NCBI GenBank assembly: GCA_947624645.1
Contig: CANQLG010000022.1
Coordinates: forward strand, 1-32,916
DNA: 32,916 nucleotides
Reading direction: 5' to 3'
From: Candidatus Gastranaerophilales bacterium
Lineage (GTDB): Bacteria > Cyanobacteriota > Vampirovibrionia > Gastranaerophilales > Gastranaerophilaceae
Position numbers and translations under genes: made by a program. The notes under the pieces were generated by a model that had not been told where the DNA came from, searched no databases, and saw nothing but the letters and a program-made list of their open reading frames with translations. Each line of letters opens with the position of its first letter. Within the stretch, counting starts at the first letter, position 1. Shown one piece after another: positions 1-32,692 of the stretch.

Positions 1-2493
1 TGGCAATAACGGCAGATATTGCCTTAGTTCATCACTTATATTAAATACTCCCGTATTCGCTGCTACAAGGTTCCTTACTACCTCTTTCTTTCTCTTTTGA
101 GATATCTCGTTTATATTTTGTTTATTTATTAATCCCTTAAATTGTGCAGCTGCTACTATATCATCTTTTGATAATCCTCTTGCTACATCCTTCCCGATTA
201 TCCGTTCTACGGCCTTTATATCTTGTATCGTTATTGTATTTGATTCTAAGACTGCTATTATATACTGCGGTGTTAGTTCTTTTTCTTCTATTTGTTCAAC
301 TAATTTTTTTGTTGATTTAATACTTTCTTCAGTAAGAAAGGCATGCTGCATTATAGTCGCTATATCATCACCGGAAAAACTTTTTTTATTTATTAATGTA
401 ATTAAAATTTCTTTATTTTTAGGAGATATTTTTGTAAAAACTTTAAAAATGTTCTCACCGGAAAACCTGAAATTATTATCTTTATCTTTTTCATTAATTA
501 ATTTATCTAAAATATCCTTATTATCCGGGGTTATTTTTAACAAAATTAAAGCAAGCTCATAATACTTAAACCTAAAGTTACCGTCTTTATCTTGTGCATT
601 AACTAAATTATTAACAACTTCCTTATTTTCAGGGGTTATTTTTGACAATATGTAAGCAATATTCTCACCAGAATACCTAAAGTTATTATCTTTATTTTTT
701 GTATTAATTAATTTATCTAAAGTATCTTTATTTTCGGGGGTAATTTTTGACAAAATAGTAGATATATCCTGACAAGAAAACCTAGAGTTATCATCTTTAT
801 CTTTTGCATTAATTAAGGTATCTAAAATTTTTTTATTTCCCGGGGTTATTTTTTTCAAAATGTCAGTAATACCATATCTATCAAACCTGAAATTACCGTC
901 TTTATCTTGTGAACTAACTAAAGTATTAACAAATTCTTTATTTTCAAGTGTTATGCTTGATAAAATGTATCCAATATCAGAGCCACAAAACCTGAATTTT
1001 TCGTCTTTATCTTTTGTATTAATTAAGGTATCTAAATTTTCTTTATTTTCAGGAGTTATACAAGATAAAATGCCTGCAATATCAGAGCCACAAAACCTGA
1101 AATTATCGTCTTTATCTTTTGTATTGATTAATGTATCTAAAATTTCTTTATTTTCAGGAGTTATGCAAGATAAAATGCCTGCAATATCAGAGCCACAAAA
1201 CCTGAAATCATCGTCTTTATCTTTTGTATTGATTAATGTATCTAAAATTTCTTTATTTTCCGGGGTTCTTGCTTGCAAAATGGAAATAATTTCATAACTA
1301 TTAAACCTGAAGTTATTATCTTTATCTTTTGTATTAACTAAAGTATTTACAAATTCTTTATTTTCCGGGGTTATGTATGAAAAGATGCAGGCAATTCCAC
1401 GACCATCAAATCTAAAATTATTGCCTGTTTTATCTTTACAATCAATTAAGGTATCTAAAATTTCTTTATTTTCTGAGGTTATTGCTTTCAAAATATCAGT
1501 AATACCATGTATATTAAACCTGGAGTCATTATATTCATCTTTTGCAGTATATAATATATCTGCAACATCAAATATAATATCCTTATTATCAGGGGTAATG
1601 CTTGAAAGAATCAGGCTAATATCGCTTCCTTTAAACTTATAATTACCATCTTTATCTATGGCATTACATAATTTTTTAAATATTTCATTATTTTCAGGGG
1701 TTATGTTTGAACTGATGGAGATAATATCGCTAGTGCCAAAATCAAGAAATTTACCATTTTCATTTTTTGCTTTAATTAATGTATTTAAGATATACATATT
1801 TTCGGGAGTCATATCTATATTTTCTAGAATATTAGAAATAAAAGCTCCCGTAAATCTAGAAGAAACTTCACCATATCCGTAAGGTATGCGTACAATATTA
1901 TTATCTTTTATCATTTCTAGCAGTATATCCCTATTCTCAGGGGTAACGTTTGGTATAATTATAGCAAGATCATCCATATAAAATCTGCGCGACGAAGCTT
2001 GTTCAGAATCTAACATTGCTTGTAAAATATCTTTATTCTCAGGGATAACATTATAAAGTACGGATGCTATATCATCTCCTGAAGCTGGAGTTGCGTAATA
2101 AAATAATTCATTAAAAAGTTTCATGTCATCTTCTAAGTATCCGCTTAAAAGATAACTCTTGCATTTTTTATTTATTTCTTTTGAATCTAAACCGTCATGA
2201 CTAATGTCAGATATAAATTGTATAAAACTTTTTTTCCTATTATTTATTCTGCCTTTAGTATCCATATTATCTAATTTTTCTATATAATTTTTTTTAGCAT
2301 CGGCAAGTAATTTGTTAAATAGTTCTGTTTCATTTTGTCTTGGATGATTAACAATAGCTTTGCCATATGCATTTAAAGCTTCAGATGCAGATATATCTGC
2401 TTGCTTTGGTTCAAGACCTGAAGTCTTTTTCTCTTTTTCTCTTGGTACTGGATTATTTACATTATTAATTCTGTTAATTTTGTTTATATCCAT
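1..2493 (-). CDS. Giant tandem-repeat protein, C-terminus beyond the left edge (partial)
   Basis: An open frame of 831 codons runs without a stop from an ATG at 2493-2491 to the window edge. A GGAG lies just upstream of the ATG. Residues ~1-145 form a charged, mostly helical N-terminal region without a signal peptide. Residues ~148-713 are sixteen tandem units, mostly exactly 35 residues, of the form xxITPENKEILDTLIN, then a DKDxNxRF loop, then a DIxxIL helix. The part after the repeats matches the neighbouring 1306-residue protein: NKQNINEISQKRKK here against NKQNINEISLKRKK there, and ISDELRQYLPLLP against VSDKLKQYFPLIP. The two are therefore tandem paralogs 45 bp apart. The paralog continues into an HD domain, so this one may too, but that lies outside the window. 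The function is not recognised. It is probably cytoplasmic, or exported by a route without a classical signal peptide. Confidence 0.85.
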   Translation of the reverse strand, partial: MDINKINRINNVNNPVPREKEKKTSGLEPKQADISASEALNAYGKAIVNHPRQNETELFNKLLADAKKNYIEKLDNMDTKGRINNRKKSFIQFISDISHDGLDSKEINKKCKSYLLSGYLEDDMKLFNELFYYATPASGDDIASVLYNVIPENKDILQAMLDSEQASSRRFYMDDLAIIIPNVTPENRDILLEMIKDNNIVRIPYGYGEVSSRFTGAFISNILENIDMTPENMYILNTLIKAKNENGKFLDFGTSDIISISSNITPENNEIFKKLCNAIDKDGNYKFKGSDISLILSSITPDNKDIIFDVADILYTAKDEYNDSRFNIHGITDILKAITSENKEILDTLIDCKDKTGNNFRFDGRGIACIFSYITPENKEFVNTLVNTKDKDNNFRFNSYEIISILQARTPENKEILDTLINTKDKDDDFRFCGSDIAGILSCITPENKEILDTLINTKDKDDNFRFCGSDIAGILSCITPENKENLDTLINTKDKDEKFRFCGSDIGYILSSITLENKEFVNTLVSSQDKDGNFRFDRYGITDILKKITPGNKKILDTLINAKDKDDNSRFSCQDISTILSKITPENKDTLDKLINTKNKDNNFRYSGENIAYILSKITPENKEVVNNLVNAQDKDGNFRFKYYELALILLKITPDNKDILDKLINEKDKDNNFRFSGENIFKVFTKISPKNKEILITLINKKSFSGDDIATIMQHAFLTEESIKSTKKLVEQIEEKELTPQYIIAVLESNTITIQDIKAVERIIGKDVARGLSKDDIVAAAQFKGLINKQNINEISQKRKKEVVRNLVAANTGVFNISDELRQYLPLLP
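355..2050 (-). repeat. Sixteen coding tandem repeats with a 105-bp period
   Basis: The equivalent TTTAT start of successive units falls at 481, 586, 691, 796, 901, 1006, 1111, 1216 and 1321, an exact 105-bp spacing. The next unit is one codon longer, and units toward the N-terminus (1500-2050) vary in length (35-43 residues). Each unit encodes helix - acidic loop - helix. The loop most often reads DKDxNFRF with Asp or Glu about four residues later. Length changes stay in frame, so the array is under coding selection. Confidence 0.9.
1061..1260 (-). repeat. Two nearly identical adjacent repeat units
   Basis: Positions 1061-1155 and 1166-1260 match over 95 bp with one difference (T1104 versus C1209). 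Other units of the array differ at many sites. The previous unit (961-1060) is also close. This suggests recent duplication by slippage or unequal recombination in the middle of the array. Confidence 0.85.
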
Positions 2494-2538: not shown

Positions 2539-5500
2539 TTAATCACCAAATACTATAAACGGCATATCTTTTTTAATAGCATATTTTTTCAAAAAGTCTT
2601 TTTGTTTATTAACAAACTTTATTACATCTCCGACTTTATCATTTTCACTGTACGCAAATACTCCCATTACCTCGGGATTTGTTATATACATTTCATTATA
2701 CGCTCGGTCCCCTTTGCGAGTATTTGAATTTATCGCAGAAAATGCCTGTATTATTTTATTTCTTACTTCTTCAGGTTCTATCGACGTAAACGGTTTATCC
2801 GCATTGTCTTTTACAAATTTGATATACTCTTCATCCGTCATTCCAAGTGTATCTTTTATTAATTCAGATATATATTTTCGGTCACTTTCTCTAAATCCGC
2901 CAAATATATAATTCCGTTTAAATTCATCTATATTTTTTCCGCGACCTGAACCTGCATCCGTTTCTCCACCACCATGCATATATTTTGTCGGGGTCGTTAA
3001 TAACACTCCCTGTGTCCTAAAAAATCTGTATTTACTCTCGGGCCGCTCCGTATAACTTACCGATAATAATGCTTCTGAATCCGGAAGCGCAAATGCTTCA
3101 AACTTTGCCAACTGGTTTGAATAATCTAATCCATGCGCAAAGAACTTTATATTCCCTGTATTTACATCCTCACTTGATTGTATCTTGCCTCTTCTTGACG
3201 AAAATCCGTGAGCCTCTATACCACTTGATATCGAGCCTTTCGGAAATCCTATCTTTTCCCAATCTCCATTTTCTACTTCATTATATTTTATTATTACAAG
3301 TCCGCCTCTATTTTTATATACGCCTTTTATATTTGTTGAACCGTCTGCATTTACTCTTGTTATTGCTTTTTCAATTTCACTTGCCTTCGGTATCGGTGTT
3401 ACCGGCATTAACGGCTGCGAGGTCTTTAATTCAGCTATATTTTTTTCTATGGCTTCAGAGTGTTCTTTGAATGCATCTTTAAATCGTTCATAAAAATAAT
3501 CGTCATTCTTTACCGCTTTCATATCAGCCTGGGTAAATATCTTTGATAACTCGAATAAATTATCATACTGCAAATCAAATGCAACAGATTGTTGTCTTTT
3601 TATAACATCAGATTTATTGGAATTTAGGTAGTTAAGCCATTCATGGTACCTTATTAAGGTATATAATTTAATTTTGTCATCTTTTGACATTTTCAATTTA
3701 TTTACTATATAGTATGTATCAAATGCACTCTCTTGAGGATGTGCTCCGTCCCGCTTCCCTTCCGTTTTATTTTGGTCGTGAAATAACGATGCTAAAAGCA
3801 TTATTTGTTTATCAGATTCGGATAATTCTTCGAAATTGGGATCCTGAACTATTTTTTGCATAACTTTTAAAGAATGCTTTATTAAATCAAAAGTGTGCGT
3901 TCCATGTTGACCTTTTTCTATTTGAGTTCTTAATTCGGGAAAATATTTTAAAGTTTGATTTAAATATTTTTCCAGTAACTTATTTTCTGTTTTTATAGGA
4001 TTATTCATTGAAAAAGCAATTACTTTCGGACGCAATTGTTCCACTACTGCTTTTGTTTGCAGATTATTTATCTGAGCTAATTTTTTCCCGTTATTTAAAT
4101 TTACGGGATATCCCGAAATACTAAATTTACTTTTTCTTTTAGAATCTGGTTGTGTTCCGTTTTCATTATGAACTAACTCAAACCCGTAATAATCATATAC
4201 TTTTTGTCTTTCTTGCGGAGTAAGATCTTTTACCGATTCATAAACATCTTTTATAAAATCTGATTTTTTATATTCCTGACTTATTGTTAAACTGTTAAAT
4301 TCCTCATCACTTATTGATTTTAATTCTTCTGCAAGATTATTTATACTCTTTTTACAATCTTTTATCTCGTCATCAGATAACGTATTTGTTTCAATACCTA
4401 TTGACCTGACTATTGACGGCAATAATGAACAGTATTCTTCTTGATTTGCCGGTATTAAAGGGAAATATTGTTTTAATTTATCGCTTACATGAAACAGTCC
4501 GCTGTTATTTTCTACTAACTTTCTTAACAGTGTTTTTTTCCTTTTTAATGAAATTTCATTAATATTTTGTTTATTACATAGCTCTACTAACTCAGCGCCT
4601 TTACTTATATCATATGCGGATAATTCCAGCATAACGTCCAAGCCGAGTATTCGCTCCATTTTTTTTATATCTTTATAATTTATTTTATTTATTTTTTTGA
4701 CTAATGCCTGAAAATACTTTGTGGGCATTTCGCCTTCTTGGATATAAGATATACATTTTTCAAGTTCTTCATACTTTTCGGTTGATATATTTCGGTTGCT
4801 TATCAAGGCAACTGCAATATCCGTTATTTCCTCAGGAAGAAATATTTTGTCTTTATTCACGATAAGTTTTTTTAGAAACTCAACATTTTCTTTTTGTGTA
4901 CCTTGTATTATTTGATTTAATATGTTTAAATCCATATCATAAGGTAATGATAATAATGTTTGCGCCATCTCAACTTTATTTTTATCACCCACTGTCAACC
5001 CAAACCAAGAGCTATTTTCTGTTGATTCAACTACCGATATAATATCTTTAATGTCATATTTATCAGGCAAATTTAACATCATTTCAATTATCGGTATAGT
5101 TTTTTTATTTGATTTTTGTATTAATTCTTCCAATTGAGATTTAAAAAAAGGATTATAATAAATATTGATTTTATCTAAAACTTTTAAAACAACTTGTGTT
5201 TTAATTTTTTTATCTTCTATATCTTCTCTTTGTTCTTCTAATGTTTGAGTAGCTTTTAATAATTCTTCTATTCCCTCCGGATATATTGAATATTTATCAG
5301 GTAATTCTATAAGTTTATTTGCGGCTTCTAAATTTATATCATCAATACAATTTAAAATTATACTTTTTTCATCATTTGTATATTTTTCATTATTAAATAA
5401 AAATTCCTCAACAAATTCTATTGTATTTTCATTTGTACCTTTAAGTATTCTTGAAATTTCTTCGGGCTTAAATTTATTATCGGATTTATCATTTATCAAT

Positions 5501-6459
5501 TTATCCGCTAATTTTATTGATGATGAATCATTTAAGTTTGAAATGATTAATGCCAGTTCTTTATTTGTATAAGATATATCAGGATCGTTTAACAATTGCT
5601 TTACATAATCAATTGTATCTTTATTTGTACCTTTTAATATTTGAGAAATTTGAGCACTATCAAATTTTAACTGACTATTTATGTATAATTTTTTATCTTC
5701 AGCTATAATATCCTTATTTATACCTGTTAATTCTTCCGCCAATTCTAAATTAGAATCATTTAAATTTTTTATTATGTCAATTTTTATATCCTTAGGATAT
5801 TCTTCATTTGAAAAATCAAATAATTTTTCTGCAAACTCAACCTTTGAATCAGTTGTATTTACTAATATCTCATGTATATCATTTTCATCAATCAAACTAT
5901 CTTTATCTGTTATTATTTTTTTTAATAGACCAACCGTTTTATCATTAACACAAAGCAAAATTATTCCCAATTCAGTTTCATCAATGGCTAAATCATTATT
6001 TTTCAGTATATATTGAGCTAATTCTTTTGCCTTTTGAGGTTCATTTAAAAGAAATTCTTTTGAATTGCGACTAATATCATAATAATTTTTAATCTGATTT
6101 TCATCTTTTCCAAATTCCAAAAAACCGTCAATTTTTTCTATATCTTCATAATTCATTCCCATATATAAAAATGGTAAAGCTAATCTGAACAATAAATCAG
6201 ATATGCCAAAAAGTTTATCTTTGGTCTCTTTATCGTTTATTCCCAAAAACTTTGCAAGTTCCATTCTCTTTTGTATAGGAACTTTAACGTAATCTTTTGA
6301 ACCGAATGAACATGATTTTATATTGGCTTTTGCATAGTTTGCAAGCAATTCGGATGCACCTGCATTTGTTTGTTTTAATTCAGCATTGATTTTAGTTTTT
6401 ACTTTTTGTTGTAATTCAGTTTTATTGATAAAATTTGCAGAACTATTACTAATTTTCAT
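2539..6459 (-). CDS. 1306-residue helical-repeat protein with HD domain and unassigned C-terminal domain
   Basis: The ATG at 6459 follows a CGGAG ribosome site. Residues ~70-600 are degenerate helix-loop-helix repeats of about 35 residues (for example EISRILKGTNENTIEFVEEF), related to those of the next gene. Residues ~850-985 look like an HD-superfamily metal-dependent phosphohydrolase: candidate ligands are H855/H862, the doublet H894-D895 in LFHDQNK, and D979 in QADMKAV. The HD substrate (nucleotide, cyclic dinucleotide or other) cannot be told. Residues ~1050-1306 form another domain with a Gly-rich GGGETDAGSGRGKN stretch starting near 1163 and a conserved-looking NEMYITNPEVMGVF around E1256. 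I do not recognise this domain. There is no signal peptide or membrane segment. The gene lies 57 bp after recN and 45 bp before its paralog. The HD assignment is fairly firm; the role is unknown. Confidence 0.85.
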   Translation of the reverse strand: MKISNSSANFINKTELQQKVKTKINAELKQTNAGASELLANYAKANIKSCSFGSKDYVKVPIQKRMELAKFLGINDKETKDKLFGISDLLFRLALPFLYMGMNYEDIEKIDGFLEFGKDENQIKNYYDISRNSKEFLLNEPQKAKELAQYILKNNDLAIDETELGIILLCVNDKTVGLLKKIITDKDSLIDENDIHEILVNTTDSKVEFAEKLFDFSNEEYPKDIKIDIIKNLNDSNLELAEELTGINKDIIAEDKKLYINSQLKFDSAQISQILKGTNKDTIDYVKQLLNDPDISYTNKELALIISNLNDSSSIKLADKLINDKSDNKFKPEEISRILKGTNENTIEFVEEFLFNNEKYTNDEKSIILNCIDDINLEAANKLIELPDKYSIYPEGIEELLKATQTLEEQREDIEDKKIKTQVVLKVLDKINIYYNPFFKSQLEELIQKSNKKTIPIIEMMLNLPDKYDIKDIISVVESTENSSWFGLTVGDKNKVEMAQTLLSLPYDMDLNILNQIIQGTQKENVEFLKKLIVNKDKIFLPEEITDIAVALISNRNISTEKYEELEKCISYIQEGEMPTKYFQALVKKINKINYKDIKKMERILGLDVMLELSAYDISKGAELVELCNKQNINEISLKRKKTLLRKLVENNSGLFHVSDKLKQYFPLIPANQEEYCSLLPSIVRSIGIETNTLSDDEIKDCKKSINNLAEELKSISDEEFNSLTISQEYKKSDFIKDVYESVKDLTPQERQKVYDYYGFELVHNENGTQPDSKRKSKFSISGYPVNLNNGKKLAQINNLQTKAVVEQLRPKVIAFSMNNPIKTENKLLEKYLNQTLKYFPELRTQIEKGQHGTHTFDLIKHSLKVMQKIVQDPNFEELSESDKQIMLLASLFHDQNKTEGKRDGAHPQESAFDTYYIVNKLKMSKDDKIKLYTLIRYHEWLNYLNSNKSDVIKRQQSVAFDLQYDNLFELSKIFTQADMKAVKNDDYFYERFKDAFKEHSEAIEKNIAELKTSQPLMPVTPIPKASEIEKAITRVNADGSTNIKGVYKNRGGLVIIKYNEVENGDWEKIGFPKGSISSGIEAHGFSSRRGKIQSSEDVNTGNIKFFAHGLDYSNQLAKFEAFALPDSEALLSVSYTERPESKYRFFRTQGVLLTTPTKYMHGGGETDAGSGRGKNIDEFKRNYIFGGFRESDRKYISELIKDTLGMTDEEYIKFVKDNADKPFTSIEPEEVRNKIIQAFSAINSNTRKGDRAYNEMYITNPEVMGVFAYSENDKVGDVIKFVNKQKDFLKKYAIKKDMPFIVFGD

Positions 6460-14113: not shown

Positions 14114-15097
14114 TTATTCCAATAAATATTTTGCTCTGTCACATACTTCCAGCCTGTAAAATCCCATTTCTTTTGATTTTTGCATTACATACTTAATCAA
14201 ATCAATAATATTTTTATCTGGTTCTTGTTTTCTGTACTTGTTAAGCCAGCTGTTTTCAATATCTATTACAATTATTTCTATTTTGTTTTCTTTATTGAAT
14301 TTAAGCCAATTATCTATTTCTTCTTTTGTATCGTTTACATACGGAATAATAATATATTTGCTTATTACATTATAGGAATTTTTTTGAGCTTTTGCGTACC
14401 GTTTAAGATTTTTACTTACGGTATTAAACTTATCAAGCTGTTTAATATTTTTATAAGTTTCTCTTGAGGAGCTGTCTATTGAAATCACAACTGAAAGCTG
14501 CCCTGTTTTTATCCCTTTTTCTATCATTCTTGAATATTTTATTCCCGAAGACGGCACCCTAATATTGGTAAACCCGTTTTTTAAAAATAAATTTATAAGT
14601 TTATCAAACTCGGGCAGAATTGTGGGTTCTCCACCGCCAAAACCTATTGCTCCGTTTCTTCTTATTATCTTTTTATCAAACATATCTTTTATTATCGGAT
14701 ATATATTATAGGTTTTTAAAGAGTTATAACCCTTTTTATCTTCTTCTGTATAACAATATTTACAAGCGCAATTACATTTTGTGAAATGATCAAAAATAAT
14801 ACTGTCTATATAATCTTCCTGAAGCCACTCACGTTCTTCCAAAAAAACGCAGCCTCGGCAGCCATCCACTGTTCCGCCGCTTTTTTGTATTTCACGGTAT
14901 TTTCTTTTTATCTCAAAAAACTTGTCCCAATCAATTTTTGTTCCGTGATAATCTTCAAATATCATCACATTTCCGCCGCCCGGAGCACTCATATAACAGC
15001 ATAATTTCACATTGGAACCGTATACCCCGTTATCAAAACAAACCCCTGATTCCAGCCAAGTGCAGCTTACATATTTTTCATATTTTTTTTCCGTCAT
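14114..15097 (-). CDS. Radical SAM protein with Cys-rich N-terminal extension
   Basis: The [4Fe-4S]/SAM-binding motif CxxxCxxC is at C108-C112-C115 (CNCACKYCY), far from the N-terminus for this family. It is followed by GFGGGEPTILPEF (the GGE motif that contacts SAM) and VVISIDSSSRETY typical of the core barrel. Upstream, C12, C20, C33, C34, C80 and C83 form a pattern like a SPASM or Twitch auxiliary cluster domain placed before, instead of after, the barrel. The reaction is unknown. It is the last gene of a three-gene operon, 6 bp after another radical SAM gene. The order suggests the pair acts in one pathway; no small precursor-peptide gene was seen nearby. Confidence 0.88.
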   Translation of the reverse strand: MTEKKYEKYVSCTWLESGVCFDNGVYGSNVKLCCYMSAPGGGNVMIFEDYHGTKIDWDKFFEIKRKYREIQKSGGTVDGCRGCVFLEEREWLQEDYIDSIIFDHFTKCNCACKYCYTEEDKKGYNSLKTYNIYPIIKDMFDKKIIRRNGAIGFGGGEPTILPEFDKLINLFLKNGFTNIRVPSSGIKYSRMIEKGIKTGQLSVVISIDSSSRETYKNIKQLDKFNTVSKNLKRYAKAQKNSYNVISKYIIIPYVNDTKEEIDNWLKFNKENKIEIIVIDIENSWLNKYRKQEPDKNIIDLIKYVMQKSKEMGFYRLEVCDRAKYLLE

Positions 15098-15103
15098 ATA
15101 TCC

Positions 15104-16078
15104 CTATTTAAAATTACAATTTAATAATCTGCAATTTCTTGTACAATTTAGTATTTCTTCTCTTATTTTTTCCGCTTTTTCACTATACCATAATTCTTCG
15201 GGCTTCGATTCTTTTAAATTTCCTATCGGCTCCATACAAAAACATATCCTGCAATTTCCGTAAGGATCTATTGCAAAATTGTTTTCACCAACGGAACATG
15301 GAAGCGTATTTATCTCTTCCGGTGTATCTATCAACATTTTAAATGCTTTTAATTGATTAAAGCCGTTGCATATAGGATAACCGTCGTTTTTTAATTCTAT
15401 CATTTCATCAATAGCTTTTAAAGCTGCTGTTTTTATATCCGTTCCGTATATTTGGCTGTCTTTATTTACTGCCGTAGAAAAAGCATCCCCGTTATCCATC
15501 AATTGAAAACTTACTCCGATTCCCTCAGTTTTGCAAAATTCCGCTATCGGCTTTATTTCACTTAAATTTGACGGCATTACAACCGTGGACAAAAATATAT
15601 TTTTCCATTTATGATTTCCGTAATGCTTATTCATATATATTAAATTTTGCAATGCATTCATCGTACGTTCAAATGCATCTTGTCTTCCCCTCGAAGTATT
15701 ATGTATTGCGGGATTTTCTACTGCATTTAATGAAAATGTTATATTACTGAATGCACTTTCCAGGACTTTATCCAACTTATCGGGCAATGCCAATGCATTT
15801 GTCACTATATTTACCGTATCACCCAAATCTGATGCATATTTTGCCATATCAAACACATCATCTCTTATAAAAGGTTCTCCGCCCGATATTATAAATTGAT
15901 AATTGCCCATCCAATTATGCATATTGAAAAGTATTTTTTTCCATTCATCAAGCGTTAATTCTTGATTCTGCACTTCGGCAGGAGTTTTCCATCCGTTACA
16001 GGTTATACATCTCGACTGGCATCTTTCCGTATTATTATACGAAAAAGATATCGGTTTTTTATCTTTTGCTATCGGCAT
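15104..16078 (-). CDS. Radical SAM/SPASM domain protein
   Basis: The 324-residue protein has the radical SAM motif C20-C24-C27 (CQSRCITC), then FIISGGEPFIRDDVF (GGE motif). The C-terminal ~70 residues contain seven cysteines (in LPCSVGEN, GNCRICFC, LNCTRNCRLLNC) in the SPASM pattern that binds auxiliary [4Fe-4S] clusters. SPASM enzymes commonly modify peptides or proteins (anaerobic sulfatase activation, RiPP maturation), but some act on other substrates, so no substrate is assigned. The ATG lies 1 bp after the stop of the GGDEF gene, indicating coupling; the next radical SAM gene follows after 6 bp. Confidence 0.9.
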   Translation of the reverse strand: MPIAKDKKPISFSYNNTERCQSRCITCNGWKTPAEVQNQELTLDEWKKILFNMHNWMGNYQFIISGGEPFIRDDVFDMAKYASDLGDTVNIVTNALALPDKLDKVLESAFSNITFSLNAVENPAIHNTSRGRQDAFERTMNALQNLIYMNKHYGNHKWKNIFLSTVVMPSNLSEIKPIAEFCKTEGIGVSFQLMDNGDAFSTAVNKDSQIYGTDIKTAALKAIDEMIELKNDGYPICNGFNQLKAFKMLIDTPEEINTLPCSVGENNFAIDPYGNCRICFCMEPIGNLKESKPEELWYSEKAEKIREEILNCTRNCRLLNCNFK

Positions 16079-16079
16079 A

Positions 16080-16958
16080 TCAATAATCCAAATTTACCTG
16101 TGAAAATAATACTATTCTGTTTTTGCCTCTCTTTTTTGCATTATATAATGCGTGTTCAGCATACCTTATAAGTGTATTTGCATTATCCTGAGAATTATCC
16201 ATATACGGGTACGATGCGATTCCGCCTGATATTTTTACAGGGTGCGGTTCTATTTCGCCTGCCGGTATAAATTGCATTTTTTCTACATCTCGCCTGAATC
16301 TTTCCGCAAATATAAATGCATTTTCTTCGCTTGTATCGGGCAATACTACCATAAATTCTTCATCTCCGTATCTGGTTACTATATCTTCTTTTCTGGCAAG
16401 ATTTAATAACATTTCGGAAACTTTTTTTAATAGTACGTCTCCCCATTCATATCCGTACATATCGTTTATTACTTTAAAAAAGTCTAAATCAAATAATATA
16501 CAAGATAATGTTGAATTATACCTCCTTGCTCTTGACATTTCGGATTCCATCCGTTCCAACAAATATTTACGGTTATGAAGTCCTGTTAAGTCATCCCTTG
16601 TTGAAATACTGCCTATTTGTTCTTTCAGTTCTTTTATTTTCATTAAGTTTTTCAATTTTATTGATAATTCATATTCTATAATCGGATTAACTATATAATC
16701 ATAAGCTTCTCCTCTTATAATAAGATTTTCGGGTATATTATCCGATATTACCAATATCGGTACGGGAAATTTCATTACCATTGATATTTCTTTTAAGTCA
16801 TTTAAAGGTATATCCAGCACTGATAAAGTTATATCCTCACTTGCCATATTTTTTATTTCTTCTGAAGGCTTTGTTTCTATATCAGACTCTGTTAATCGTC
16901 TTACCATTTGTTCCAATACAGTATTTTCCTTATCGGTATAAATAATTATTCTATTCAT
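16080..16958 (-). CDS. REC-like plus GGDEF domain protein (variant active-site motif)
   Basis: Residues ~1-115 form a degenerate receiver domain: a possible phospho-acceptor D49 (VLDIPLND) is kept, but the conserved C-terminal Lys is replaced (DYIVNPI instead of DYxxKPF). Residues ~125-290 are a GGDEF domain, which makes cyclic di-GMP from two GTP. FDLDFFKVINDMYG supplies metal- and guanine-binding residues and RKED (R189, D192) is the inhibitory I-site, at the usual five residues before the signature. The signature reads G198-D-E-E-F instead of GGDEF/GGEEF; the second Gly is changed to Asp, so activity is uncertain. It heads an operon with two radical SAM genes and has its own promoter. Confidence 0.9.
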   Translation of the reverse strand: MNRIIIYTDKENTVLEQMVRRLTESDIETKPSEEIKNMASEDITLSVLDIPLNDLKEISMVMKFPVPILVISDNIPENLIIRGEAYDYIVNPIIEYELSIKLKNLMKIKELKEQIGSISTRDDLTGLHNRKYLLERMESEMSRARRYNSTLSCILFDLDFFKVINDMYGYEWGDVLLKKVSEMLLNLARKEDIVTRYGDEEFMVVLPDTSEENAFIFAERFRRDVEKMQFIPAGEIEPHPVKISGGIASYPYMDNSQDNANTLIRYAEHALYNAKKRGKNRIVLFSQVNLDY

Positions 16959-28083: not shown

Positions 28084-28536
28084 ATGAGAATTAACAGAGT
28101 TAGTATTAATACATATCCGTGCAGTTTTTCAGCCAATAAAGGAACGGCGTATAAGCCTCCGATAGTACAACAAAATGACAATAAAAAACTGAAAGCAGGT
28201 TTAATTGCGCTCGGCGTATTAGGCATGGCTGCAATAGGCTATGGCGTGGTAAAAAATATTAATAACTGTAAATTAAAATCAGTAAAAAATTTCATAAAAG
28301 ATGTAAAAAATCTTATGAATAATAAACCCGTGACTGACTCAATTACAAAACAACTTGATGGCAGACGCGGAGCAGAAGCCGTAAAAATTTATAACGGTTA
28401 TAGAGCGGTAAATAAGTTAGAATCTATGCATAATAAACTGTTAAACGGGTACTTTGACGGAAAACCCGCAGTTGTATTTGAACACCTGAGAAATAATGAA
28501 CGAATCATGCAACGACAAGCACTTTTCGCTGTGTAA
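28084..28536 (+). CDS. Small hypothetical protein with one membrane segment
   Basis: The 150-residue frame has a strong promoter and ribosome site. Residues ~37-58 (LKAGLIALGVLGMAAIGYGVV) form one hydrophobic segment; the rest is basic. The first residues (MRINRVSINTYPCSF) resemble the start of the hypothetical protein at 32692 (MRVNSISQTKQSFKS). No known domain is seen. Its end overlaps the start of hydE by 41 bp in another frame, which suggests coupled expression, although a hydrogenase link is not otherwise supported. Confidence 0.7.
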   Translation: MRINRVSINTYPCSFSANKGTAYKPPIVQQNDNKKLKAGLIALGVLGMAAIGYGVVKNINNCKLKSVKNFIKDVKNLMNNKPVTDSITKQLDGRRGAEAVKIYNGYRAVNKLESMHNKLLNGYFDGKPAVVFEHLRNNERIMQRQALFAV

Positions 28537-32230: not shown

Positions 32231-32692
32231 TTATGCTTCTGTATTAACTCTGTGTGCAAGAGTTTGCTCAAGTGCTTTAGTAAATTCAATGGTTCTTTCT
32301 ATACCTTTAGAATTTGACAATTTATTATATTTTTTTGTTATATCTTCATCGTTTTCCGTATGGAGCAGAATAAGCTGTTTATTACCTTTTTTATCGTTTG
32401 GAACAAGTGCATATAAATAACCGTCCCCGTTAGGATTTTTGCCGGAAGTATTCATAAACAATTTTTCCGGAGGGTTATAGCCGTATATTTCATCATCAAT
32501 AAGATTATACACTTGAGCACCCTTGGAATTGATATATAAATCAGTGTACATATAATTTTGCATTACTTTTGATGCTTTAATGACTTCCAATAAATCTTGA
32601 ACGGAAAGTTTATTTAAATATTTATCCGCATCTTTTGTAACTATTAATGACTTAAATGATTGTTTTGTTTGTGAAATTGAATTTACTCTCAT
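32231..32692 (-). CDS. Hypothetical protein
   Basis: The 153-residue frame has an AGAAGG ribosome site before the ATG. It has no signal peptide or membrane segment. It contains a helical part (YLNKLSVQDLLEVIKASKVM), a Tyr/Asn/Gly-rich middle (IYGYNPPEKLF, NPNGDGYLYALVPN) and a helical C-terminus. The N-terminus MRVNSISQTKQSFKS resembles that of the small membrane protein at 28084. No known domain is recognised. It is a single gene bounded by a terminator and divergent from nifJ. Confidence 0.75.
   Translation of the reverse strand: MRVNSISQTKQSFKSLIVTKDADKYLNKLSVQDLLEVIKASKVMQNYMYTDLYINSKGAQVYNLIDDEIYGYNPPEKLFMNTSGKNPNGDGYLYALVPNDKKGNKQLILLHTENDEDITKKYNKLSNSKGIERTIEFTKALEQTLAHRVNTEA

What the first reader, a model, noticed from the sequence alone, without database searches (positions are those of the whole stretch)
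355..2050. Tandem array of EF-hand-like helix-loop-helix units with exact 35-residue period
Many of the sixteen units carry a 12-residue loop of the form D-K-D-x-N-F-R-F-x-x-x-D/E between two helices, for example DKDDNFRFCGSD, DKDGNFRFKYYE and DKDNNFRFNSYE. This places acidic or Asn residues at EF-hand positions 1, 3, 5 and 12, with a hydrophobic residue at 8, and the total fits one EF-hand per unit. The Gly at position 6 is replaced by Phe. Either these are unusual calcium loops or a solenoid repeat that converged on the pattern. I know of no described family with this exact unit.
Basis: partly seen in the sequence, partly recalled or inferred. Interest (0 to 1): 0.7.

Follow-up and report, generated by a model that had tools for sequence, protein, structure and literature searches.

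The report
Helical solenoid repeats, not EF-hands
A gut bacterium of the Gastranaerophilales encodes a protein with sixteen tandem two-helix repeats whose loops resemble calcium-binding EF-hands, but the evidence shows an unannotated helical solenoid with a six-residue loop insertion, normally joined to a conserved HD-type hydrolase.

Summary
The repeat is real. It is a minus-strand gene (window 1-2493, cut by the contig end) with 16 units at window 343-2049. Ten units are exactly 35 residues; the others are 29, 34, 36, 36, 39 and 45. The EF-hand reading is not supported. Over 146 family units, none has Gly at loop position 6 and only 17 have acceptable residues at 1, 3, 5 and 12. The conserved loop residues are the non-ligand ones (G4, F/Y6, R7, F8). 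EF-hand profiles find 12 places in this genome but not the array. AlphaFold2 (pLDDT about 90) gives a continuous alpha-alpha solenoid with one beta-bridge inside each loop. Profile-profile comparison shows homology to 29-31-residue loopless units in sister proteins (P 2e-9; score 43.7 against at most 16.7 in 200 shuffles), with a six-residue gap exactly at the loop; unit 16 of the same protein is itself a 29-residue loopless unit. Full-length relatives join this solenoid to an HD phosphohydrolase-fold core (Z 17.7 to 3wfs/3wfo) and a C-terminal domain without a family match; the core occurs in about 55% of sampled genomes of the family. Most likely it is the variable binding arm of an HD hydrolase; function and target are inferred.

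The parts
1..2493 (-). repeat-protein gene (P0001, 831 aa); its 3' end is cut off by the contig end at base 1
   Evidence: ATG start, one open frame
2050..2493 (-). N-terminal region of P0001 (aa 1-148), low model confidence, with an 'A-L-N-A-Y-G-K-A' stretch shared with relatives (consensus ALxSYGRA)
343..2049 (-). array of 16 two-helix units (aa 149-717); lengths 34, 45, 36, 35, 39, 36, then nine of 35, then 29
   Evidence: AlphaFold2
430..1374 (-). nine consecutive units of exactly 35 residues (aa 374-688); DNA identity between units 65-95%, highest (0.87-0.95) among the three units at 955-1269
1081..1116 (-). example of the EF-hand-like 12-residue loop (DKDDNFRFCGSD, aa 460-471); the model pairs K459 with F465 inside the same loop
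343..429 (-). unit 16: a 29-residue unit that lacks the loop (ISPKNKEILITLINKKSFSGDDIATIMQH) but continues the solenoid
1..342 (-). loopless helices after the array and the conserved 'NKQNINEIS' stretch that leads into the HD core in relatives
2539..6459 (-). adjacent paralogue (P0003, 1306 aa): N-terminal stretch rich in helix-like 30-34-residue units without the DxxG loop, then the same core
3421..4380 (-). HD-hydrolase-like region of P0003, invariant H...HD...H...H...D across 30 relatives
2542..3417 (-). C-terminal alpha/beta domain of P0003 (about 290 aa), no family match

Best explanation
The array is an alpha-alpha solenoid. Each unit is helix A (DIxxIL), a conserved TPEN turn, helix B (KEILDxLI), and a short loop KDxxGxFRF closed by one beta-bridge. 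The apparent EF-hand loop is a six-residue insertion (about 'DxxGNxR') into a 29-31-residue two-helix unit found in sister proteins. Its conserved G4, F/Y6, R7 and F8 are structural, and no metal is needed. The solenoid is probably the variable binding arm of a protein whose conserved C-terminal half is an HD-superfamily phosphohydrolase plus an uncharacterised alpha/beta domain. Shown by computation: unit boundaries, loop statistics, homology to loopless units, confident solenoid model, HD fold of the core. Inferred: that this truncated gene carries the core, that the solenoid binds a protein partner, and that the HD centre is catalytic.
For: (1) AlphaFold2: pLDDT about 90 for aa 380-720, two helices per unit, continuous, with an intra-loop bridge. 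(2) hhalign of the 35-residue against the 29-31-residue units: Prob 96, P 2e-9, score 43.7; best of 200 column shuffles 16.7, reversed 7.3; the gap is exactly six residues in each unit (repeated with other alignments, P 1.2e-7). (3) Unit 16 of the same protein is 29 residues without the loop. (4) Entropy over 155 units: EF positions 3, 5 and 12 are variable (2.5-3.0 bits) while G4, R7 and F8 are conserved (0.8-1.1 bits) and F/Y6 fairly so (1.8). (5) EF-hand Pfam models find 12 places in the own genome, none in the array. (6) Full-length homologue P0002 and P0003: HD core, Z 17.7 over about 193 residues to 3wfs/3wfo, next group Z 9.9; HD ligands invariant in 30 sequences; Pfam HD in 23 of 30, best E 2.9e-5. 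(7) Contig C24 begins inside the C-terminal domain and is followed by the dehydrogenase gene that follows the repeat-HD gene in L032, so this gene's missing end probably lies there.
Against: A single-sequence search gives calmodulin at E about 0.001-0.002, although a family profile loses it. Some true EF-hands lack Gly6 and still bind calcium (NOX5 EF1, PMC7317449), so Gly6 alone does not decide. In this particular protein 6 of 13 loops keep a plausible ligand set, so weak calcium binding by some loops is not excluded. The solenoid is a prediction, with pTM 0.60 for the whole chain. The HD core of this gene is not in the window. The binding role rests on analogy.
Confidence: 0.8

Rival explanations
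1. Unusual EF-hand: each unit is a helix-loop-helix that coordinates calcium through loop residues 1, 3, 5 and 12, giving up to 16 calcium sites and calcium-dependent rigidity.
For: D-K-D-x-N ... D/E pattern, hydrophobic residue at 8, about one hand per unit; phmmer to calmodulin E 0.0012-0.0024; 6 of 13 window loops have a usable ligand set.
Against: 0 of 146 units have Gly6, 17 of 146 meet the four-ligand minimum; Lys at position 5 in 51 of 155; unit 16 lacks the loop and unit lengths range 29-45; no EF-hand family in Pfam scans, none in own-genome EF-hand searches that do find real ones; the model puts a beta-bridge inside the loop rather than between paired loops.
Confidence: 0.05
2. TALE-like nucleic-acid-binding solenoid: each unit reads a base through the turn between its two helices.
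For: Best Foldseek matches in the PDB are TALE and BurrH chains (E 1.1e-3 to 2e-2); repeat length 35 against 33-35.
Against: VIA Z mostly 3.5-5.5 at rmsd up to 12-18 A, while a designed helical repeat reaches 7.7; such values are common for helical repeats. No TALE chain in sequence or profile searches at E up to 10. The inter-helix turn (TPEN) is conserved, whereas a code needs it variable. Arrays are acidic (net -7 over 315 aa here; all 14 arrays negative).
Confidence: 0.06
3. The solenoid is a structural spacer or scaffold with no specific partner; copy number drifts by unequal recombination between near-identical units.
For: Units 8-10 share 87-95% DNA identity, a sign of recent tandem duplication; detected unit number differs widely between relatives.
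Against: Columns 7, 8, 24, 27 and 28 are far more variable (3.2-3.7 bits) than the hydrophobic core columns, as expected for a binding face; but variability also fits neutral drift.
Confidence: 0.25

Closest known systems
EF-hand (Pfam PF13499, PF13202, PF00036) and dockerin
   Same: Helix, acidic 12-residue-like loop, helix; D at 1, often D at 3 and N at 5; hydrophobic residue at 8
   Different: No Gly6; ligand positions not conserved in the family; loop length varies and the loop can be absent; predicted intra-loop bridge and continuous solenoid; no profile match
TALE-like repeats (TAL effectors, BurrH) and mTERF
   Same: Two short helices per 33-35-residue unit, long solenoid; top Foldseek matches
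   Different: No sequence match; conserved rather than variable inter-helix turn; acidic; extra loop with beta-bridge; low VIA Z
HD-superfamily hydrolases: the 'tRNA processing enzyme' of PDB 3wfo-3wfs; GlnD (TIGR01693), HD part
   Same: Conserved core of the family has the HD fold (Z 17.7 over about 193 residues) and invariant H...HD...H...H...D; NCBIfam GlnD match E 1.9e-7 for P0002
   Different: 17% identity; joined to a variable N-terminal solenoid and to a C-terminal domain with no family match; substrate unknown
29-31-residue loopless units of sister Gastranaerophilales proteins (L052, L055, L057, L058, L089, L090)
   Same: Homologous helix pair, same position in front of the same HD core
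   Different: Lack the six-residue loop; also unannotated in Pfam

Membership tests
EF-hand | Gly (or equivalent) at loop position 6 | tested here: not met
   0 of 146 units; F/Y instead. Rare calcium-binding exceptions exist (NOX5 EF1)
EF-hand | Oxygen ligands at positions 1, 3, 5 and 12 | tested here: not met
   17 of 146 family units (6 of 13 window loops); Lys at position 5 in 51 of 155
EF-hand | Constant 12-residue loop | tested here: not met
   Units of 29-45 residues in this protein, unit 16 without loop; homologous units lack it
EF-hand | Recognised by EF-hand profile models | tested here: not met
   Own-genome searches with PF13499 and PF13202 find 12 places each, none in C22; Pfam scans
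EF-hand | Paired helix-loop-helix with loop-to-loop beta contact | tested here: not met
   Model: continuous alpha-alpha solenoid, bridge inside each loop; prediction, not a solved structure
EF-hand | Calcium binding | not testable with these tools
   needs calorimetry or a structure
TALE-like | Two-helix repeats of 33-35 residues in a solenoid | tested here: met
TALE-like | Detectable sequence similarity to TALE repeats | tested here: not met
   no TALE chain at E up to 10 with sequence or profile
TALE-like | Hypervariable di-residue in the inter-helix turn | tested here: not met
   Turn is conserved TPEN; E and N columns 1.5 and 0.7 bits
TALE-like | Superimposable superhelix | tested here: inconclusive
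   VIA Z up to 5.5, rmsd mostly above 12 A for long alignments
HD-superfamily hydrolase (core of the protein family) | HD fold | tested here: met
   Z 17.7, 3.1 A over about 193 residues to 3wfs/3wfo, for P0003; the core of P0001 is not in the window
HD-superfamily hydrolase (core of the protein family) | Metal-ligand motif H...HD...H...H...D | tested here: met
   H302, H334-D335, H347, H379, D419 invariant in 30 sequences
HD-superfamily hydrolase (core of the protein family) | Phosphohydrolase or nuclease activity | not testable with these tools
   needs an assay

The most novel reading that the evidence does not exclude
The proteins are a modular effector-like family of gut Gastranaerophilales: a conserved HD hydrolase plus new C-terminal domain carried behind exchangeable, fast-evolving recognition solenoids, including the 35-residue kind, and exported to act on a host or competitor.
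Probability: 0.2. Interest if true: 0.65.

Novelty: new variant of a known kind. Interest (0 to 1): 0.36.

Why it matters
It removes a tempting but wrong annotation (a 16-fold calcium-binding protein) and replaces it with a repeat family absent from Pfam, with a visible evolutionary step: a six-residue loop inserted into a 29-31-residue two-helix repeat and then spread through the array. It also brings to light a large paralogous family (present in 210 of 383 sampled genomes of the bacterial family) with a conserved HD core and a C-terminal domain of unknown function in gut bacteria known here mainly from metagenome assemblies.

Tried and rejected
Calmodulin match: appears only with the single window sequence, disappears with a profile of 21 two-unit blocks; taken as a short-motif resemblance. 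Pfam HrcA, HOOK, GGDEF and NCBIfam Obg matches: tiny pieces spread over repeats, mostly below cut-off or without a stretch that passes; chance. Viral structure library: nothing convincing. Viral and phage sequence collections: none. No dockerin or EF-hand chain appears in the VIA list, which is not by itself evidence. The unit HMM does not reach significance on P0003, so P0003's N-terminal units are called similar, not proven homologous. Literature searches found no description of the family. One call failed for a frame error and was not repeated.

Full report
Observation. The gene is on the minus strand (window 1-2493, 831 aa) and is cut off at base 1, where the contig ends. Sixteen units can be cut at window 343-2049. 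Units 4 and 7-15 are exactly 35 residues; the rest are 34, 45, 36, 39, 36 and 29. Tandem Repeats Finder sees the array as 105-base and 315-base periods. Three neighbouring units (window 955-1269) share 87-95% of their DNA, a sign of recent duplication. So the count and place are right; 'exact period' is right for 10 of 16.

Source. A homologous locus lies in a Candidatus Gastranaerophilales genome (CANQNX010000002.1, L032). Gene order is shared: dnaJ, propeller-like protein, methyltransferase, NAD kinase, recN, repeat-HD gene (gene names other than the repeat genes are read from the sequences, not searched). The full-length homologue there (P0002, 1344 aa) has the same kind of repeats, then the conserved NKQNINEIS stretch, an HD region and a C-terminal domain. 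The window holds two such genes side by side: P0001 (the finding) and P0003 (window 2539-6459).

EF-hand test. An HMM built from the nine regular units collected 192 matches in 17 frames of relatives; 155 clean units were compared. The loop consensus is K-D-x-x-G-[NK]-[FY]-R-F-x-G-x-[DNE]-I. Position 6 is never Gly. Position 5 is Lys in a third. Positions 3, 5 and 12 are variable (2.5-3.0 bits), while G4, R7 and F8 are conserved (0.8-1.1 bits) and F/Y6 fairly so (1.8). Only 17 of 146 units meet even a lax ligand rule. The conserved positions are those that a calcium loop would not need, and the ligand positions drift. The calmodulin resemblance of the single sequence (E about 0.001-0.002) vanishes with a profile. 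As a positive control, EF-hand models PF13499 and PF13202 find 12 places each in the same genome, one over the curated cut-off, and none in this array. A true EF-hand can lack Gly6 (NOX5 EF1, PMC7317449), so the case rests on all these together.

Fold. AlphaFold2 with 14 relatives gives pLDDT about 90 over aa 380-720: two short helices per unit, packed as a continuous solenoid. DSSP reports two bridge residues in each loop, the residue before D1 and loop position 6 (K459 and F465 in unit 9), which I read as one bridge closing the loop; EF-hand loops instead pair with a neighbouring hand. The helices continue through unit 16 and beyond, where the loop is missing. Foldseek's best matches are TALE-like repeat proteins (E about 1e-3 to 2e-2), but VIA Z is at most 5.5 at large rmsd, within what helical repeats commonly give; there is no sequence similarity to TALEs, the inter-helix turn is conserved, and the arrays are acidic. 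I take this as a shared general arrangement, not membership.

Origin of the loop. Sister proteins with the same core carry 29-31-residue units (e.g. TNEKNIAIAEKLCSDKDFPKDVVSFIVFL in L089). Profile-profile alignment of two-unit blocks gives Prob 96, P 2e-9, score 43.7, with a six-residue gap at the loop in both units; 200 column shuffles reach at most 16.7 and the reversed profile 7.3. Other alignments of the same two unit types give P 1.2e-7. Some L055 units have a loop longer by two residues, and unit 16 of the window protein is itself 29 residues without the loop. The 'EF-hand loop' is therefore best read as a six-residue insertion into an existing two-helix repeat (the direction, insertion rather than loss, is inferred and not tested by a tree).

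Context. Matches to P0002, mostly in the core after the repeats (about 746 aa), are found in 210 of 383 sampled genomes of the bacterial family, and in a phylum-wide sample of 292 genomes the core is found only within this family. The 35-residue unit is patchier: in that sample it reaches E 1e-6 in only two genomes, both of this genus, although relatives from two further genera of the family carry it (L034, L040, L048, L056). The core model (pLDDT 86) matches HD-domain structures 3wfo-3wfs at Z 17.7 over about 193 residues, well above the next group (phosphodiesterases, Z 9.9). The ligands H302, H334-D335, H347, H379 and D419 are invariant in 30 sequences. The C-terminal 290 aa have no credible match in Pfam or PDB sequences. 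Giant relatives reach 6,608 aa, this one with a LysM domain (E 1e-6), which hints at export.

The missing end. Contig C24 of the same genome starts inside this C-terminal domain and is followed by the same dehydrogenase-like gene that follows the repeat-HD gene in L032. The gene in the window therefore probably continues there, across a core so similar to P0003 that assembly broke.

Mechanism. Most likely: a variable helical arm positions an HD phosphohydrolase on its target. Supporting this, columns 7, 8, 24, 27 and 28 of the unit are the most variable (3.2-3.7 bits) and the hydrophobic core columns the least. Not shown: the partner, the substrate, export, and catalysis.

Noticed in passing
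G000 contigs C22 (window 1), C24 end (L079:2214-3098), C10 start (L080:1-249): Three contig ends of this genome break inside copies of the same HD/C-terminal core; near-identical paralogues probably broke the assembly.
   Followed up: partly
L084:149-19975: A 6,608-aa relative with a LysM domain near its N-terminus and the same HD/C-terminal core at its end; other relatives exceed 3,000 aa.
   Followed up: partly
L085, L088: Giant relatives contain 'RHELTHxN'-type stretches (metalloprotease-like) and a 'GYTALQ...EWQxRG...AEHVPYD' stretch that reminds of RelA/SpoT synthetases; no Pfam match at E 0.01, so unproven.
   Followed up: partly
L089:305-600: The N-terminus of a giant relative has a more canonical EF-hand-like loop (DSDKNGLIETNN, with Gly6), in contrast to the array.
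   Followed up: no
window 28084-28536, 32231-32692, and N-termini of L004, L005, L008, L026: Many proteins here begin with M-[KRED]-[IV]-N... followed within about 30 residues by an [AS]F[KGS]-type stretch; it could be a shared N-terminal sorting signal.
   Followed up: no
G000:C6:22307-22534: A 194-aa frame that does pass the EF-hand_7 cut-off: the genome has a real EF-hand candidate elsewhere.
   Followed up: no
window 14114-16078: Two adjacent genes (327 and 324 aa) with CxxxCxxC-type motifs that look like radical-SAM proteins, next to a GGDEF-like gene at 16080-16958.
   Followed up: no
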